A DNA stretch of 45,342 nt from Bacilli bacterium. Lineage in GTDB: Bacteria; Bacillota_I; Bacilli_A; ML615J-28; CAG-313. A program made the translations under genes and the position numbers. The stretch is taken from the NCBI GenBank assembly GCA_017463365.1, contig JAFTPH010000056.1:1-45342 (forward strand), given 5' to 3'. This document shows, piece after piece, positions 20,275 through 26,359 of the stretch (position 1 is the first letter of the stretch; every line of letters starts with the position of its first letter). The notes below the pieces were generated by a model. That model saw only the letters and a list, made by a program, of their open reading frames with translations, was not told the DNA's origin and did not search any database.

Positions 20275-21369
20275 ATGGAAATTGGAAAAGTTATTAAAAA
20301 TGCAAGAATGAATAAAAAAATCACTCAAGAACAACTTGCAGAAGCGTTAGGTGTAACTACACAAGCAGTAAGCAAATGGGAAACTAATTGTTCTTATCCA
20401 GACATTACTTTGATTCCTTCTATCGCAAATTACCTAAATGTATCATCAGATGAACTTCTTGGTATTAAACTAGAAGAAAGAAAAAGAAATATTGATGAGA
20501 TTATAAAAAAGAATAATGAATTAATTAGTCAAAGATATTTGGATGAAAGTTTACAACTAATGACTGAATCTCTAAAAAAATACCCTAATGATGAAAGATT
20601 ATTAAATGAACTTACTAAATGCTATTGGGCAAGAATGATGATGACTTATGATAAACCTGAATTGTTTGATTATCGTCAACAACTAAAAAAATTGATTATT
20701 GAAAATGCAGAAAAAACTCTTGAAGTAGCTAGAAATCCTGAAATTATAGAGGATGCCACAATATACTTAATTCAAACATATCCAAGACTTGGTGAAGAAG
20801 GAAGATTAAAAGCACTTGAAATAGTTAATACTTTACCAGGAATTGATTATTCTAAAGAGTTAAGATTAACAAATGTTTTATCTGGTAATGATAGAAAAAG
20901 AAGACTTCAAGAAAATGTTATATTATTATTACGTTTAATTAATAAAAACTTTTCTTTTAGATTAGTTGAATTTTATGATGATATTGAAGAAAAAATTGAA
21001 ATTTTTAAGAAGAATATAGATTTAATTAAATTAATTATAGGAAATAACTTATATTGGTTTAATATTCCATGTTCAAACTTTGCTTTTGAAATTGCAGTAT
21101 ATTATGCTCAACTAAAAGATAAAGAGAATACTCTTAAGTGGTTAAATGAGTCCGCAAATTATGCGCATGCCGTTATAGATAGTCCTGAAAATGGTGAATA
21201 TGATTCTTATTGGATTAAAGGTGTAAAGTATTCAATTACAAAAATAAAAAATTACGAAGGACAATCAGACGTGTTTGAAAATAAATACTTCGATTTTATT
21301 AGAGATTTAGAAGAATTTAGTGAAGTTAAGAAAAGATATTTAAGTGCATATGGTAAAAAAAACTATTAG
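20275..21369 (+). CDS. XRE regulator with TPR-like C-terminal domain
   Basis: Residues 1-60 are a Cro/C1 helix-turn-helix (IGKVIKNARMNKKITQEQLAEALGVTTQAVSKWETNCSYPDITLIP) followed by LNVSSDELLGI. The remaining 300 residues are helical repeats (SLQLMTESLKKYPNDERLLNEL..., KEKENTLKWLNESANYAHAVID), as in peptide-responsive or protein-binding regulators. RBS GAAAGGAATA precedes the ATG. It is a single-gene unit. The C-terminal part resembles that of the next XRE gene (KYPNDERLL against NYPNDYEIM), so the two are probably paralogues. Confidence 0.82.
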   Translation: MEIGKVIKNARMNKKITQEQLAEALGVTTQAVSKWETNCSYPDITLIPSIANYLNVSSDELLGIKLEERKRNIDEIIKKNNELISQRYLDESLQLMTESLKKYPNDERLLNELTKCYWARMMMTYDKPELFDYRQQLKKLIIENAEKTLEVARNPEIIEDATIYLIQTYPRLGEEGRLKALEIVNTLPGIDYSKELRLTNVLSGNDRKRRLQENVILLLRLINKNFSFRLVEFYDDIEEKIEIFKKNIDLIKLIIGNNLYWFNIPCSNFAFEIAVYYAQLKDKENTLKWLNESANYAHAVIDSPENGEYDSYWIKGVKYSITKIKNYEGQSDVFENKYFDFIRDLEEFSEVKKRYLSAYGKKNY

Positions 21370-21414
21370 TTAAAAACTTAACTTAAAGTTAATGCATGGT
21401 TAACTATCAGTAGG

Positions 21415-21488
21415 TGGTAAATACATTTTTTTGATGATATAATATTATCGTAAACTAGTTTATGTTGTAATTAAGGCCGATATTACAA
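21415..21488 (+). promoter_or_regulatory. Promoter and two dyads before XRE gene 2
   Basis: TGGTAA (21415-21420), 17 bases, TATAAT (21438-21443). Then comes the 12-base palindrome TAAACTAGTTTA (21451-21462), and a second dyad TTGTAAT (21465-21471) with ATTACAA (21482-21488) around a GGCC centre. The same order of elements occurs at 9793-9861. Confidence 0.65.
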
Positions 21489-21529
21489 ATAAAATATAAG
21501 CAAAACTGCTTTAAGAAAGGAATGTATTT

Positions 21530-22420
21530 ATGAATATTAAAATTTCAGAAAATATCAAAAGATTAAGAAAAGCTAAAAAGATTACTCAAGAAGGACTAGC
21601 AGAAATCTTTAATGTTACACCTGCTGCCGTCAGCAAATGGGAAAACGCAGAAACATACCCTGACATTACATTGTTATTTCCATTATCACATTTCTTTGGT
21701 GTATCGATTGATGAACTTATGGGATATGATCATATGATTATAGAAGAAGAAATTAAAAAAGTTAAAGAAGAAATTCATAATGCTTGGTATGTTAATAATG
21801 ATTGGAATAAAGCCAAAGAATTAACAATTAATGCCAAATTAAACTACCCTAATGATTATGAAATAATGGTAAATTACTTATTCTTCACAACAGGTGGAAT
21901 GGCTGATAATGATCCAAATGTACTTTTACAAAACGAAAAAGAAATTATTAAAGTCTGTGATTTAATCCTAGAAGGTTGCAATGTAGAAAACTATAGACTA
22001 GAAGCTATTACATATAAAGCAAAAGTATTATATGCAAAAGGTGATGAGCAAGCTGCATTAGAACTACTTAATAATTTTCCATCATTTTATCATGCAAGTG
22101 GACAAAGAATTGAACAATTATATCAAAAAGGAACTAAAGAATACTATAATCAGTTAACATTGAATTTGTATGAATTAGCTGCGTTTGTAGGTAATAAACT
22201 TGGAAAACATATTTCATATGATAAAAAGTTATTAGATGAAGAAAAGATTAATAAAGTAGACAAATTAGTAGAGTTATATAATAGTATTTCAGATGATAAG
22301 GATTATGATGTTTTAGCAAAAATTATTAAGGATGCTATTAAAGAAGTAATGCATAGAAGTAAACAAATTGGATTTTATAATCAAGAAATAGAAAAAATAA
22401 ATAACAAAATGAAAAGATAA
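21530..22420 (+). CDS. XRE regulator with TPR-like C-terminal domain
   Basis: The 296-aa protein opens with a Cro/C1 helix-turn-helix (ISENIKRLRKAKKITQEGLAEIFNVTPAAVSKWENAETYPDITLLFP) followed by FGVSIDELMGYD. The rest is helical and repeat-like (NDWNKAKELTINAKLNYPNDYEIMVNYLF, EAITYKAKVLYAKGDEQAALELL). RBS AGAAAGGAAT precedes the ATG. Autoregulation through the dyads downstream of its promoter is likely. The effector is unknown. Confidence 0.82.
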   Translation: MNIKISENIKRLRKAKKITQEGLAEIFNVTPAAVSKWENAETYPDITLLFPLSHFFGVSIDELMGYDHMIIEEEIKKVKEEIHNAWYVNNDWNKAKELTINAKLNYPNDYEIMVNYLFFTTGGMADNDPNVLLQNEKEIIKVCDLILEGCNVENYRLEAITYKAKVLYAKGDEQAALELLNNFPSFYHASGQRIEQLYQKGTKEYYNQLTLNLYELAAFVGNKLGKHISYDKKLLDEEKINKVDKLVELYNSISDDKDYDVLAKIIKDAIKEVMHRSKQIGFYNQEIEKINNKMKR

Positions 22421-22423
22421 GTA

Positions 22424-22463
22424 AAAAAGTCAGACAGCATATTAATAAGCTGTCTGACTTTTT
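22424..22463 (+). terminator. Strong terminator
   Basis: A 15-bp perfect stem, AAAAAGTCAGACAGC (22424-22438) with GCTGTCTGACTTTTT (22449-22463). Confidence 0.93.
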
Positions 22464-22469
22464 ATTTAG

Positions 22470-22498
22470 TAGATAAAAATTTGGTTTTATGGTATAAT
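22470..22498 (+). promoter_or_regulatory. Promoter of the TGA-containing ORF
   Basis: TAGATA (22470-22475), 17 bases, TATAAT (22493-22498) with TG one base upstream. It lies 7 bases after the terminator. Confidence 0.75.
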
Positions 22499-22548
22499 AT
22501 TTACATCTGCATAGTTATTGCAGAAATAAAATAAAGGAGGTGAAAAGC

Positions 22549-22707
22549 ATGATAAAAATTGCTACCCTTCTTACTATGATAGTGGCAATCGCCTGATATT
22601 GAGTACCTGTACTTTGAGGTAAGGGAAAAGTATCTACAAAGATTGCTTACCTAGTAGGAGTCTTTGGTACTATTGTTTTGATTATAGCTTATTTTATAGG
22701 TGAATAA
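22549..22707 (+). CDS. Small two-helix membrane ORF with three in-frame TGA codons
   Basis: A strong AAAGGAGGTGA ribosome site precedes ATG 22549. The 52-codon frame ends in TAA at 22705. Its only interruptions are TGA at codons 16, 18 and 23 (22594, 22600, 22615). Read as Trp they complete a coherent protein: helix 1 IKIATLLTMIVAIAWYWVPV, a basic loop GKGKVSTK, helix 2 AYLVGVFGTIVLIIAYFIG. No TGG is used. With normal stops only a 15-aa hydrophobic peptide is made. It has its own promoter. Possible readings are a gene acquired from a TGA=Trp organism, a recoded gene, or a leader peptide with a decayed tail. Small membrane toxins have a similar shape. Confidence 0.5.
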
Positions 22708-22728
22708 TCTGCAATAGATATGACTTTA

Positions 22729-22756
22729 AGGATGGTATAAACCAATAAGCCATCCT
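22729..22756 (+). terminator. Weak hairpin before the HAD gene
   Basis: AGGATGG (22729-22735) pairs with CCATCCT (22750-22756). No T run follows, so it may be only an attenuator or mRNA-end structure. Confidence 0.4.
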
Positions 22757-22788
22757 GATTTGCTATTATATAAATTATGAGGGATTAT

Positions 22789-23403
22789 ATGAATATTAAA
22801 TGGTTATTTTTTGATGTAGGTACAACTTTAGTAAACGAAGAAAAAGCATATGACCATCGTGCTTTAGATATGATTAAAGATGTTAATATATCATTTGAAG
22901 AATTTAATAAAAAAAGAATTGAACTTGCTGAACTTGGTTTAGATGGTAATAGTGCAGCAATTAAATTTTTTAATCTAAATAAAACACCTTGGCATTCAGA
23001 AGATGAAATATTATATGAAGATACAGTCATTGTACTTGAATATTTAAAGAGTAAAGGTTATAAATTAGGTGTTATAGCAAATCAGAAAAAAGGACTAAAA
23101 GAAAGACTTGACGAATTTGGTATTTTAAAATATTTTGAACTAATAATTGCATCAGATGAAGTTGGTATATCAAAACCTGATAAAGAGATTTTTAATGTAA
23201 CAATATCTAAAGTAAACTGTATTCCACAAGAGTGTGTTATGATTGGTGATAGATTAGATAATGATATTATTCCTGCAAATCAAATTGGAATGAAAACAAT
23301 ATGGATAAGACAAGGCTTAGCAAAATATCAAGCAATTAAATTAGGTGTAGAATATTCAAATTTTGTAGTGAGTTCATTATCCGAAATTAAAGATATTTTA
23401 TAA
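22789..23403 (+). CDS. HAD-superfamily hydrolase
   Basis: This is probably a phosphatase acting on a small phosphorylated metabolite in the cytoplasm. Motif I is DVGTT (residues 9-13): the nucleophile Asp is present, but the usual second Asp is Gly, as in some HAD lines. Later motifs are present: SKPDKEIF (Lys of motif III) and MIGDRLDNDIIPANQIGM (motif IV). The start at 22789 follows GAGGG; an ATG at 22777 lacks a site. It heads an operon with a methyltransferase and a small membrane protein. Confidence 0.85.
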   Translation: MNIKWLFFDVGTTLVNEEKAYDHRALDMIKDVNISFEEFNKKRIELAELGLDGNSAAIKFFNLNKTPWHSEDEILYEDTVIVLEYLKSKGYKLGVIANQKKGLKERLDEFGILKYFELIIASDEVGISKPDKEIFNVTISKVNCIPQECVMIGDRLDNDIIPANQIGMKTIWIRQGLAKYQAIKLGVEYSNFVVSSLSEIKDIL

Positions 23404-23418
23404 TAGGAGAAATGTAAT

Positions 23419-24399
23419 ATGTTTAAATGTCCTAAATGTGGAAATAAATTAATAAATTTTAAATGTAAAAAATGTCATTATGAAATACCTATTCAAAATG
23501 GTGTGAAATATTTTTGCGAAGAAGAAAATATAAATACCAAAGATGATGGACATAAATATATTGGTTATGATGACATCAATATTCACTTTTCACCAAGCCT
23601 AATATATTGGGGACTAGATCATTATGGTATATATGGAGCTAGTGCAGAAGATATTGTTAAAAGATATGGAAAAGACATTATTGTTCTAGATTTGGGATGT
23701 GGATTAGGTTCAGCTACAATTCCATTTGCAAAAGTAGGTGCAATAGCAATTGGTGCTGATATTAGTGAAAAGATGCTAGAATTCACATATCAAAGAAGTG
23801 AAGGAAAATATGATAACTTACATCTTTGTAAAATGAATGCTTATAATTTGAATTTAGAAGATGAAAGTGTTGATGTTGTAGTAGAAAACGCAATGATTCA
23901 TTTAGTAGATAATCCAGAACAAGTATATAAAGAAATTTATAGAGTACTAAAAATAGATGGTAAGTTTATTAGGTTTACATCACCTGGACTTCCAATAACT
24001 GAAGAACAAAAACAATTATCAATAAATAGTAGAAATGCATTTAAAGATGTAAGAAACTATTATTATGAGGCACTAAAAGAGTTAGGATATGAACCCGTTG
24101 ATTTTGATAATAACTCATTTGAAATAGAAAAGAAATATTTTTATATACCACAATGTGAAGAAAACCATATTGTTTTAGATTACGAAGAAGAGTTTACTGA
24201 ATTTATGAAATTTAGAATTCATAGATTAGAACATAAAGCACATTCATTCCTACAACATATTCCAGATGATATTCATCAGGTAGCTTGGAAAAAAGCAGAT
24301 GAATATGCTAAAGAAAAATATGGAGAAAACTATAAAGAAATGAAAAGTTATTCTCATTACAATGCAGGGTATGATATATATTTAAAAAAGGAGATATGA
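23419..24399 (+). CDS. SAM-dependent methyltransferase with N-terminal zinc ribbon
   Basis: The N terminus holds two Cys pairs (CPKCG and CKKC, residues 4-19), a zinc ribbon like that of RlmA-type rRNA methyltransferases. A class I SAM-binding domain follows with VLDLGCGLGSATIPF and ADISEKMLEF, then VDVVVENAMIHLVDNP. At 326 aa it is longer than the RlmA family and the substrate is unclear. RBS TAGGAG lies 15 bases after the HAD gene. It stops at TGA. Confidence 0.83.
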   Translation: MFKCPKCGNKLINFKCKKCHYEIPIQNGVKYFCEEENINTKDDGHKYIGYDDINIHFSPSLIYWGLDHYGIYGASAEDIVKRYGKDIIVLDLGCGLGSATIPFAKVGAIAIGADISEKMLEFTYQRSEGKYDNLHLCKMNAYNLNLEDESVDVVVENAMIHLVDNPEQVYKEIYRVLKIDGKFIRFTSPGLPITEEQKQLSINSRNAFKDVRNYYYEALKELGYEPVDFDNNSFEIEKKYFYIPQCEENHIVLDYEEEFTEFMKFRIHRLEHKAHSFLQHIPDDIHQVAWKKADEYAKEKYGENYKEMKSYSHYNAGYDIYLKKEI

Positions 24400-24946: not shown

Positions 24947-26167
24947 CTACTTACATTTTTGGTATGTGTAAGTTGAACTCGTCTTGTGCATATAGAAGAT
25001 TATTCTTACTAGTTGGTTAGCACAAGCCATAGACGCAACTTTAGGCTTAAGAGGGTTTAATTGGTGCGTCTTTTTTTGATATTTAGTTTTAATAGCATTA
25101 GGTTCTCTATTAGCTTTAATTAAACTAGATACCATTAAATGAAGAATAGTTCTAAGACGCTTATTACCTTTTTTAGACATTTTAAGATGAAGACCATCTT
25201 TATCGCCAGATTGTCTAATCATAGGATCAATACCCGCATAAGCAACGATTTGCTTATAATTTGTAAATCTAGATATATCACCAAGTTCAGCAATGAACTT
25301 ACATGTTAATATATCTTGAATTCCCGGAAGTGAATGTACAAGATTATAAAGAGGGACTTTCTTAGCAAGTTCATTCATTTGAATAACTGTATATTTTATT
25401 TGATTTAGATAATATTCTATTTGAGTGATGTATGAAAGAAGCATAATGATATCTGGCTCAGTAACAGAGCAACCTGATACAATTTCATTAACTAAAGGAG
25501 TAAGTTTTTTAACTTTAGATGAAGTCCAACTTTCTAAGTGATTCCATTTTTCTTTTAAGGTTTCAATAATTTTATCTTCTGATTTTGAAGTATAAATAGA
25601 TGGATGAGGAAATTCTTTTAAGAAAGTTAAAGATTCATCACTATAAATACTAGTAAATAACTTTTTATAGTTTGGGTAGATAACAGCTAAAGTTTCTCTA
25701 AAGTTTACTTTTATTTTAATTAAATGTTTCATACAAGTATCATAGTATCTATTTAGTTTTCTTAAATTAGAATATGATTCATCTTCAGAGTAGAACATAC
25801 CTAAATTATTGGTATAGAAAAGTTTAGATAAACTTAAGCAATCTCTAGCATCAGTTTTTTGCTCTCTAATTTCGCTGCTTCTGGCTTTAGCAGCTCTTAA
25901 TGGAGCAACAATATGATACTTTAGATTTTGTGATATAAGGAATTTTTCAAGGGACTTATGATAAATTCCAGTAAATTCAAAAATAATTAAAGGAGATTCG
26001 TTTGTTTTACTCTCAATTAAATCTTTAAGAGTTAAAATAAATTGATATCCTTGTTTAGTGTGTCTCATAGTTCTAGCTTTACTTAAAGGTTTATTTGATC
26101 CAATAAATCCTTGAATGTGACTTTTATTTTGAGATACATCAATAGTAATACAGGTATTTTGATTCAT
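24947..26167 (-). CDS. IS110-family transposase (DEDD/Ser recombinase)
   Basis: This 406-aa recombinase uses a RuvC-like DEDD domain and a C-terminal serine domain, guided by a bridge RNA in characterised relatives. The DEDD residues are visible: D10 in ITIDVSQ, E64 in IIFEFTG, D106 and D109 in KTDARDC. The C-terminal part has LPGIQDILTCKFIAELGDISRF, YAGIDPMIRQSGD (with the catalytic Ser) and KKGNKRLRTIL. I prefer the start at 26167, since AAAGGA lies at correct spacing; ATG 26185 is in frame upstream without such a site. It appears complete. Confidence 0.93.
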   Translation of the reverse strand: MNQNTCITIDVSQNKSHIQGFIGSNKPLSKARTMRHTKQGYQFILTLKDLIESKTNESPLIIFEFTGIYHKSLEKFLISQNLKYHIVAPLRAAKARSSEIREQKTDARDCLSLSKLFYTNNLGMFYSEDESYSNLRKLNRYYDTCMKHLIKIKVNFRETLAVIYPNYKKLFTSIYSDESLTFLKEFPHPSIYTSKSEDKIIETLKEKWNHLESWTSSKVKKLTPLVNEIVSGCSVTEPDIIMLLSYITQIEYYLNQIKYTVIQMNELAKKVPLYNLVHSLPGIQDILTCKFIAELGDISRFTNYKQIVAYAGIDPMIRQSGDKDGLHLKMSKKGNKRLRTILHLMVSSLIKANREPNAIKTKYQKKTHQLNPLKPKVASMACANQLVRIIFYMHKTSSTYTYQKCK

Positions 26168-26326
26168 AACAACACATCCTTTCATTTTGCCTGTACAAGT
26201 GGTTGATAACTTCCTAACTCAATTGAGTTTATTCTTCAAGCCTATATTCGCAAGTCATACAGGTTCAATACTAAAAAGTATAGTCCTAAAAACATATAAA
26301 CAGGTTTACAAAGAAAAAGGAAGGGC
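26168..26326 (-). ncRNA. Candidate IS110 bridge RNA
   Basis: In IS110/IS621 elements the 5' non-coding end encodes the bridge RNA that pairs with target and donor DNA. Here a good minus-strand promoter ends at 26332, so a transcript would run from about 26326 to the transposase start, about 160 bases. It contains hairpin-forming segments, such as ACCTGT with ACAGG-type partners and the palindrome ACTCAATTGAGT (near 26220). The two guide loops cannot be assigned without folding and element ends. Confidence 0.5.
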
Positions 26327-26331
26327 TCCAA

Positions 26332-26359
26332 ATTATACCGCGGATTCATAATGTTCCAA
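26332..26359 (-). promoter_or_regulatory. Minus-strand promoter of the IS non-coding region
   Basis: On the minus strand TTGGAA (26354-26359), 16 bases, TATAAT (26332-26337). It would transcribe the bridge RNA candidate and the transposase. Confidence 0.7.

What the first reader, a model, noticed from the sequence alone, without database searches (positions are those of the whole stretch)
22549..22707. Small membrane ORF whose only interruptions are three TGA codons
The frame has a near-perfect ribosome site, its own promoter, and a TAA end. TGA occurs at codons 16, 18 and 23, and no TAA, TAG or TGG occurs inside. With TGA as Trp it gives a two-helix protein containing WYWVPVLWG. Nearby genes use TGA as stop and TGG for Trp. 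So this gene either came from a TGA=Trp lineage (Mycoplasma-like code 4 or its mobile elements), or is recoded in place, or makes only a 15-aa hydrophobic peptide here.
Basis: partly seen in the sequence, partly recalled or inferred. Interest (0 to 1): 0.75.

Follow-up and report, generated by a model that had tools for sequence, protein, structure and literature searches.

The report
Small membrane ORF with three UGAs
A tiny orphan bacterial gene with an exceptionally strong ribosome-binding site is cut by three UGA stop codons that would read naturally as tryptophan, and its host's only detected tryptophan tRNA has features known to make UGA leaky, so whether the full protein is made is an open but easily tested question.

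Summary
In detail: 22549-22707 has a perfect 11-nt Shine-Dalgarno (SD), TGA at codons 16, 18 and 23, no TAA, TAG or TGG, and a TAA end. TGA-only interruption alone is common here. The SD is not: two such sites exist in the host genome, and 29 of the 30 in 43 genomes of its order open a frame of at least 29 aa. The open, hydrophobic second half arises in about 6 in 10,000 shuffles (4 of 299 real control frames).

No homologue was found, including in 320 genomes of the Mycoplasma-like order (TGA=Trp usage seen in six sampled members). Codon usage fits neither these nor the host. Origin from a TGA=Trp lineage is therefore unsupported.

The host keeps RF2, and none of its 32 detected tRNAs has anticodon UCA. 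Its only detected tRNA-Trp(CCA), however, has a four-pair anticodon stem (C27·U43) and C9, both linked in print to UGA readthrough. UGA stops are rarer in its family than in the sister family, with exceptions.

Best reading: a type-I-toxin-like small membrane ORF that mostly ends at UGA-16 and is occasionally read through as Trp. Nothing shows that the long product is made; a 15-aa peptide alone is nearly as likely.

The parts
22424..22463 (.). two 20-nt arms, 95% complementary, no loop, with T runs on both strands; probable terminator of the upstream HTH gene
   Evidence: (I1), sequence; the terminator scan did not list it
22470..22498 (+). promoter-like site TAGATA-17-TATAAT with TG before the -10
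   Evidence: number of such sites in the region equals shuffles
22506..22524 (+). hairpin TCTGCA-TAGTTAT-TGCAGA at the expected 5' end of the transcript
22533..22543 (+). perfect 11-nt Shine-Dalgarno AAAGGAGGTGA; predicted to pair with codons about 5-9
   Evidence: pairing strength not exceptional
22549..22707 (+). ORF with three in-frame TGA; 52 aa if TGA=Trp, 15 aa otherwise
22549..22593 (+). 15-aa hydrophobic peptide MIKIATLLTMIVAIA (table 11)
22594..22596 (+). TGA codon 16
22600..22602 (+). TGA codon 18
22615..22617 (+). TGA codon 23
22618..22704 (+). positively charged loop and second predicted helix
22708..22722 (+). TCTGCAATAGATATG, 87% complementary to 22510-22524; possible 5'-3' pairing
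   Evidence: I2; by my own rough estimate a repeat of this size is within chance for so AT-rich a region
22729..22756 (+). hairpin AGGATGG...CCATCCT without a T run

Best explanation
A real, translated, orphan small membrane-protein gene that works like a type I toxin of the TxpA/YonT sort (very strong SD, folded mRNA, small hydrophobic product). Ribosomes load efficiently at 22549; most stop at UGA-16 and release a 15-aa hydrophobic peptide; a minority read UGA-16, -18 and -23 as Trp, using the host's UGA-prone tRNA-Trp(CCA), and complete a 52-aa two-helix membrane protein. The UGAs would act as a brake on a product harmful to the cell's own membrane. Shown: the sequence features, SD rarity, RNA fold energy, predicted two-helix model, tRNA structure. 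Inferred: transcription, translation, readthrough, toxicity and regulation.
For: SD is the longest match of 124 sites in 402 kb; 29 of the 30 such SD sites in 43 genomes of the order open frames of at least 29 aa, and this alone stops at 15. Open plus hydrophobic tail: 0.0006 of shuffles. A coding score trained on window genes is positive in this frame for the whole ORF (4.6 bits) and below zero in the other five. Single-sequence AlphaFold2 model: two helices, mean pLDDT 86.4. Transcript z = -5.26, just below the lowest (-5.03) of 120 random own-genome segments. The only tRNA-Trp among 32 detected tRNAs has C27·U43 and C9. In print, the C.U-unpinned tRNA-Trp raised UGA readthrough in a reporter, and C27A, G43U, A9C and G24A are reported to allow it (PMC13092985). 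UGA is 56 of 633 stops in five family genomes (host included) against 60 of 362 in six sister-family genomes. [quoted passage not shown] subtilis, 11-12 bp (PMC3531473, passage).
Against: No homologue anywhere searched. Synonymous codon usage is unlike host genes (10 of 1980 gene stretches as low) and at the intergenic median. The tail's coding score (3.1 bits) is under the 95th percentile of wrong frames (3.6) and intergenic DNA (3.8), and one reverse frame of the tail is also positive (1.0). 4 of 299 real control frames are as open and hydrophobic. Another strong-SD gene ends in TGA and would run on 39 codons under table 4 (L188), so such run-ons happen by chance. Three successive UGAs would multiply any leak down to very little. 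PMC13092985 itself cites an in vitro test in which C27A alone gave no readthrough, and its own gain came from overexpression. No antisense RNA shown. SD sequestration is not exceptional (4th of 30 by opening energy). Host keeps RF2 and uses UGA as a stop. One genome with the same tRNA (G012) shows no UGA depletion and one with the ordinary tRNA (G015) does.
Confidence: 0.33

Rival explanations
1. Only the 15-aa peptide is made, under the standard code, as a leader peptide or mini-peptide in the structured 5' leader of the downstream HAD-hydrolase and methyltransferase genes; the hydrophobic frame beyond is coincidence.
For: RF2 present, no UCA anticodon among 32 detected tRNAs, strongly folded transcript, no terminator listed between the ORF and the gene at 22777 (a simple scan that also missed 22424-22463), codon usage past UGA not host-like.
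Against: Open and hydrophobic tail is rare in shuffles and this frame scores best; the other 29 sites with an 11-nt SD in the order open frames of at least 29 aa; no antibiotic-resistance or amino-acid-biosynthesis family was matched downstream.
Confidence: 0.3
2. A fragment brought in from a phage or other element that reads TGA as Trp, silent beyond codon 15 in this host.
For: All three Trp-like positions are TGA and none TGG; codon usage foreign to the host and nearer to two sampled 37%-GC genomes of the class (G197 4.2 against 4.4 expected, G214 4.6 against 6.8), which are not TGA=Trp users; ORF GC 33% against 26% for the window.
Against: No convincing homologue in 320 genomes of the Mycoplasma-like order, viral contigs, phages or plasmids; codon usage does not match six sampled genomes of that order; no phage structural gene among the ten neighbours scanned, although two HTH genes resemble phage repressors below the curated cut-off.
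Confidence: 0.15
3. Chance: a strong SD-like sequence before a meaningless frame in an AT-rich intergenic region.
For: TGA-only interrupted frames are common (34 in the window, 5 with at least three TGA, e.g. 26058-26351 with four); codon usage at the intergenic median; no conservation; 4 of 299 real downstream frames are open and hydrophobic.
Against: An 11-nt SD with good spacing opened a frame of at least 29 aa at the other 29 of 30 sites in this order; the pattern read backwards matched 6 times in the 43 genomes against 30 for the pattern.
Confidence: 0.2

Closest known systems
Type I toxins TxpA and YonT of Bacillus subtilis
   Same: Small hydrophobic product; 11-12 bp SD, the two strongest in that genome (PMC3531473, passage); here 11 nt, strongest in 402 kb; folded mRNA.
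   Different: No family match in Pfam or NCBIfam and no PDB sequence, only weak PHROGs hits of unknown function; no antisense antitoxin shown; three in-frame UGAs; no prophage seen among ten neighbours.
[quoted passage not shown] PMC13092985)
   Same: Top pair of the anticodon stem unpaired by a C.U mismatch as in Blastocrithidia and Condylostoma, sole detected tRNA-Trp, fewer UGA stops in the family.
   Different: The host is standard-code with RF2; its tRNA also has C9 and A24, so it is outside the paper's strict 'Blastocrithidia-like' class; no genome-wide use of in-frame UGA seen.
Genetic code 4 (Mycoplasmatales, some phages)
   Same: TGA at Trp-like positions, no TGG.
   Different: No homologue found there, codon usage different, host uses TGA as a stop.

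Membership tests
Type I toxin (TxpA/YonT-like) | small hydrophobic membrane peptide | tested here: met
   52 aa, two helices if TGA=Trp; 15 aa hydrophobic otherwise; prediction only
Type I toxin (TxpA/YonT-like) | antisense RNA antitoxin over the gene | tested here: inconclusive
   a minus-strand promoter-like site at 22793-22765, but the number of sites is at chance level
Type I toxin (TxpA/YonT-like) | sequence relation to a described toxin family | tested here: not met
   none in Pfam or NCBIfam, no PDB sequence; PHROGs best E = 0.036, unknown function
Type I toxin (TxpA/YonT-like) | growth arrest on expression | not testable with these tools
   needs a bench test
Gene of a TGA=Trp (code 4) lineage | homologue in a code-4 genome | tested here: not met
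   320 genomes, 9 rows at E 0.01-0.1, best one a chance frame, 8 not opened; 6 sampled genomes of that order use TGA 29-55 against TGG 2-13
Gene of a TGA=Trp (code 4) lineage | codon usage of such a genome | tested here: not met
   scores -14.8 to 2.6 against 23.4 to 30.8 expected, six genomes, 20 kb each
Host genome recoded TGA=Trp | loss of RF2 or tRNA-Trp(UCA) | tested here: not met
   prfB 500 bits, no stop inside; 32 of 32 detected tRNAs not UCA (150 of 155 candidates scored); genome 97.4% complete
4-bp anticodon-stem tRNA-Trp(CCA) readthrough | top anticodon-stem pair unpaired, 7-nt loop, CCA | tested here: met
   CCGGT CTCCAAA ACCGT; open top pair in 8 of the 11 family members parsed, host included
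4-bp anticodon-stem tRNA-Trp(CCA) readthrough | strict class without A9C or G24A | tested here: not met
   own tRNA has C9 and A24; the paper says both favour readthrough
4-bp anticodon-stem tRNA-Trp(CCA) readthrough | UGA actually read as Trp | not testable with these tools
   needs a reporter or proteomics

The most novel reading that the evidence does not exclude
Most sampled members of a family of Bacilli carry a UGA-prone tRNA-Trp while, in this host at least, the standard code and RF2 are kept, and this ORF is a gene built around that leak: an over-strong ribosome site feeds three UGA brakes, so a membrane-active 52-aa product appears only as rare readthrough, for example when RF2 or tRNA-Trp levels change.
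Probability: 0.2. Interest if true: 0.75.

Novelty: new variant of a known kind. Interest (0 to 1): 0.42.

Why it matters
If the 52-aa product is made, it would be a case of partial UGA-to-Trp decoding used in a standard-code bacterium, in a lineage with an already loosened tRNA-Trp: an intermediate on the route to UGA reassignment that can be tested directly. If only 15 aa is made, it is a strongly initiated mini-peptide of unknown purpose.

Tried and rejected
Homologue searches with the TGA=Trp protein. Own genome: one copy. Relatives: 199 genomes, 9 rows at E <= 0.1, namely self plus 8 with E from 0.047, not opened. Order: 43, self only. Class: 395, self plus two weak hits, which lie in frame inside two unrelated larger membrane proteins (ECF-transporter-like and LspA-like by my reading). 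Mycoplasma-like order: 320, 9 rows at E <= 0.1, best 0.01; that one lies in another frame of a 724-aa code-4 ORF by my reading of the coordinates, and the other 8 were not opened. Phylum: 392, the same two hits as the class. These sets overlap. Genome contigs: one hit in Veillonella, inside a longer ordinary membrane ORF. Viral contigs: none. These two scans need near-exact short peptides or exact patterns and can miss distant relatives. Phages and plasmids: only chance hits at E of 5-10. DNA search: 129 of 199 genomes gave matches at E <= 0.1; in the rows listed (the list was cut), all but self were short, the best 60 nt. No DNA match in phages or plasmids.

Synteny: the downstream HAD protein has only partial matches (E <= 1e-10 in 10 of 43 genomes of the order, host included) and under 60% identity in plasmids, so no comparable locus was found.

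Fold search against viral proteins: 199 hits, none at E <= 0.001; a helical hairpin is too common a shape to tell anything. Rfam at gathering scores: only the tRNA.

Mobile cassette: the inverted repeat at 22510-22524 / 22708-22722 was considered as element ends; no second copy was found in the genome, and by my rough estimate it is within chance. Dropped.

Other TGA-interrupted genes in the host: 15 candidate sites in 10 frames in 402 kb. Seven of the ten frames were scanned and none had a Pfam match. The frames I looked up on L098 (two), L109 and L101 lie opposite or across longer standard ORFs; the rest were not looked up. TAG (11 sites) and TAA (47) gave a similar background.

Translation attenuator: no antibiotic-resistance or amino-acid gene matched downstream, so kept only as a rival. 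SD sequestration as a special toxin mark: not exceptional. Anti-phage defence: no match for the ORF.

It also added controls and caveats left out (15 of 124 short frames, one positive reverse frame, the L188 run-on, the in vitro result).

Full report
What is there. The frame at 22549-22707 is as described. It lies between an HTH regulator gene (21530-22420), which ends at a strong inverted repeat with T runs on both strands (22424-22463), and a HAD hydrolase (22777-23403) followed by a methyltransferase (23419-24399). A promoter-like site and a 5' hairpin precede it. The host is a 1.74-Mb, 97.4%-complete genome in 65 contigs; its order has 43 held genomes in two families.

Chance. Frames interrupted only by TGA are common in this AT-rich DNA: 34 of at least 60 codons in the window, 14 with two or more TGA, 5 with three or more. 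The TGA pattern alone is therefore weak evidence. The ribosome site is better evidence. In 402 kb of host DNA (20 stretches plus the window, 23% of the genome), 124 ATG sites with a closed frame have at least 7 nt of SD; this one has 11 and is the top. Fifteen of the 124 open frames under 20 aa; with at least 8 nt it is 4 of 35 (this one and three sites matched only by AGGTGATC). An exact pattern search of 43 genomes found 30 sites in 18 genomes, two of them in the host; the backward pattern matched 6 times. Of the 30, 29 open frames of at least 29 aa (one in the host runs off its contig after 41 codons), and this ORF alone stops at 15 aa. Three others end in TGA and would run on 3, 17 and 39 codons under table 4, as ordinary gene ends. 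Initiation at 22549 is therefore likely.

Is the second half coding? For: after codon 15 the frame is free of TAA/TAG and strongly hydrophobic, 0.0006 of 20,000 shuffles (0.041 for open, 0.0064 for hydrophobic). A score trained on window genes is 4.6 bits for the whole ORF in this frame and below zero in the other five. The single-sequence AlphaFold2 model is a two-helix hairpin with mean pLDDT 86.4. Against: synonymous codon choice is at z = -3.07, as low as only 10 of 1980 host gene stretches and equal to the intergenic median of -3.04. The tail's score (3.1 bits) is below the 95th percentile of wrong frames and of intergenic DNA (3.6 and 3.8), and one reverse frame of the tail scores 1.0. 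On real downstream frames, open plus hydrophobic occurs in 4 of 299. The evidence leans towards coding but does not settle it; foreign origin would explain the codon choice.

Homologues. No convincing one was found in any collection (Pfam, PHROGs, NCBIfam, PADLOC and PDB). The Mycoplasma-like order was searched in 320 genomes. Six sampled genomes use TGA 29-55 times against TGG 2-13 in 20 kb each, so the search did cover a TGA=Trp lineage. The ORF's codon score against these six was -14.8 to 2.6, where a native gene would be expected to score 23.4 to 30.8; against the host it was 1.9 where 23.2 is expected; two sampled 37%-GC genomes of the class came near their expectation. The genome-contig and viral scans need near-exact short peptides, so distant relatives could be missed.

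Decoding in the host. RF2 is present (500 bits against a cut-off of 370). The tRNA family search found 32 tRNAs (150 of 155 candidates scored), and all 32 were read by ARAGORN through 16 loci and the window: one tRNA-Trp, anticodon CCA, and no UCA. That tRNA-Trp has the anticodon stem CCGGT/ACCGT, leaving the top pair as C.U (positions 26 and 42 of the gene, 27 and 43 in standard numbering), with C at position 9 and A at 24 by my numbering. PMC13092985 (abstract, sections 17, 18 and 20, and passages read) reports that unpinning the top pair (26C.42U) in Blastocrithidia and Condylostoma raised UGA readthrough. It also reports that overexpressed C27A tRNA in E. coli raised it about 2.5-fold, that G43U and C27A are experimentally linked to readthrough, and that A9C and G24A favour it. 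The same paper gives cautions: in vitro, C27A alone gave no readthrough (cited there); many standard-code bacteria (2677 genomes) have only the 4-bp form, so this tRNA does not prove recoding; and the combined effect with A9C or G24A is unknown.

Among relatives, one search found a tRNA-Trp match in 87 of 120 genomes (11 of 15 in the family). I took 88 tRNA stretches (30 loci plus 58 fetched). 78 were parsed, 76 with CCA; 10 failed to parse and were dropped. Of the 76, 22 have the top pair open, 13 have C27.U43, 12 have C9, and 8 have an open top pair with C9: the host, six of its family, and one genome labelled f7. One further f7 genome (L141) failed but showed the same features. In the family, 8 of 11 parsed have the open top pair, 3 have five pairs. 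The position-9 reading may be off by one for tRNAs whose start was misplaced, which can inflate G; the C9 cases in this family read correctly from the printed sequences. The A at 24 is common in the class by my reading of the listed sequences.

UGA stops are 56 of 633 in five genomes with this tRNA (host included) and 60 of 362 in six sister-family genomes with the ordinary one (TGA against TAG, Fisher p = 0.0065; ORFs of at least 100 aa, parts of each genome). The genomes are related, so they are not independent points. G012 (10 TGA, 6 TAG) and G015 (2 TGA, 11 TAG) run against the trend. No other TGA-interrupted gene appeared among the candidates checked in 402 kb, so any leak does not look like a general code.

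RNA. The transcript 22505-22775 folds at z = -5.26, just below the lowest of 120 random own-genome segments, most of which will be coding (minimum -5.03, median -0.56); one search gave -4.29 for 22500-22775. The ORF alone is at -1.73 and the minus strand of the whole at -2.55. The SD is predicted to pair with the early codons, but the cost of opening it ranks 4th of 30 and is ordinary among 78 host genes.

Mechanism. [quoted passage not shown] subtilis, with 11-12 possible pairs (PMC3531473, passages). I propose strong loading, termination at UGA-16 in most passes, and rare completion of a 52-aa hairpin protein through the UGA-prone tRNA-Trp. Every step from transcription on is inferred. PMC7918605 (abstract and outline only) argues that in-frame stops in bacterial genes are often tolerated and lower expression, which fits such a brake in general terms. 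Two paper searches for in-frame UGA combined with toxin, leader-peptide or small-membrane-protein terms returned nothing; this covers only the open-licence library and those terms.

Verdict. Observation confirmed; code-4 origin not supported; in-place readthrough plausible on circumstantial grounds; a 15-aa product alone or a chance frame not excluded.

Noticed in passing
host contig G000:C37:52652-52725 (L060:1576-1649, minus strand): The host's only detected tRNA-Trp(CCA) has an open top anticodon-stem pair (C.U), C9 and A24; the open pair with C9 recurs in 7 of 11 parsed family members (host included) and in two f7 genomes, and nowhere else among the parsed class sample.
   Followed up: yes
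24947-26185 (minus strand): IS110-family transposase gene (DEDD and Transposase_20 domains); its flanks were not examined for a guide RNA.
   Followed up: no
26058-26351 (plus strand): A 97-codon frame with four TGA and no TAA/TAG that partly overlaps the IS110 gene on the other strand; probably a chance look-alike that warns against reading TGA-only frames as recoded genes.
   Followed up: partly
20275-22420: Two successive HTH regulators resembling phage repressors below the curated cut-off, with long C-terminal parts.
   Followed up: no
L166 (G000:C15:123-142): The only other 11-nt SD of this kind in the host precedes what looks, by my reading of its first residues, like a TnpB-type protein at a contig end.
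   Followed up: no
L094-L113, L127, L252-L291 and the window: UGA stop usage is lower in the sampled parts of five genomes of the host's family than in six of its sister family, with two exceptions among the eleven.
   Followed up: partly
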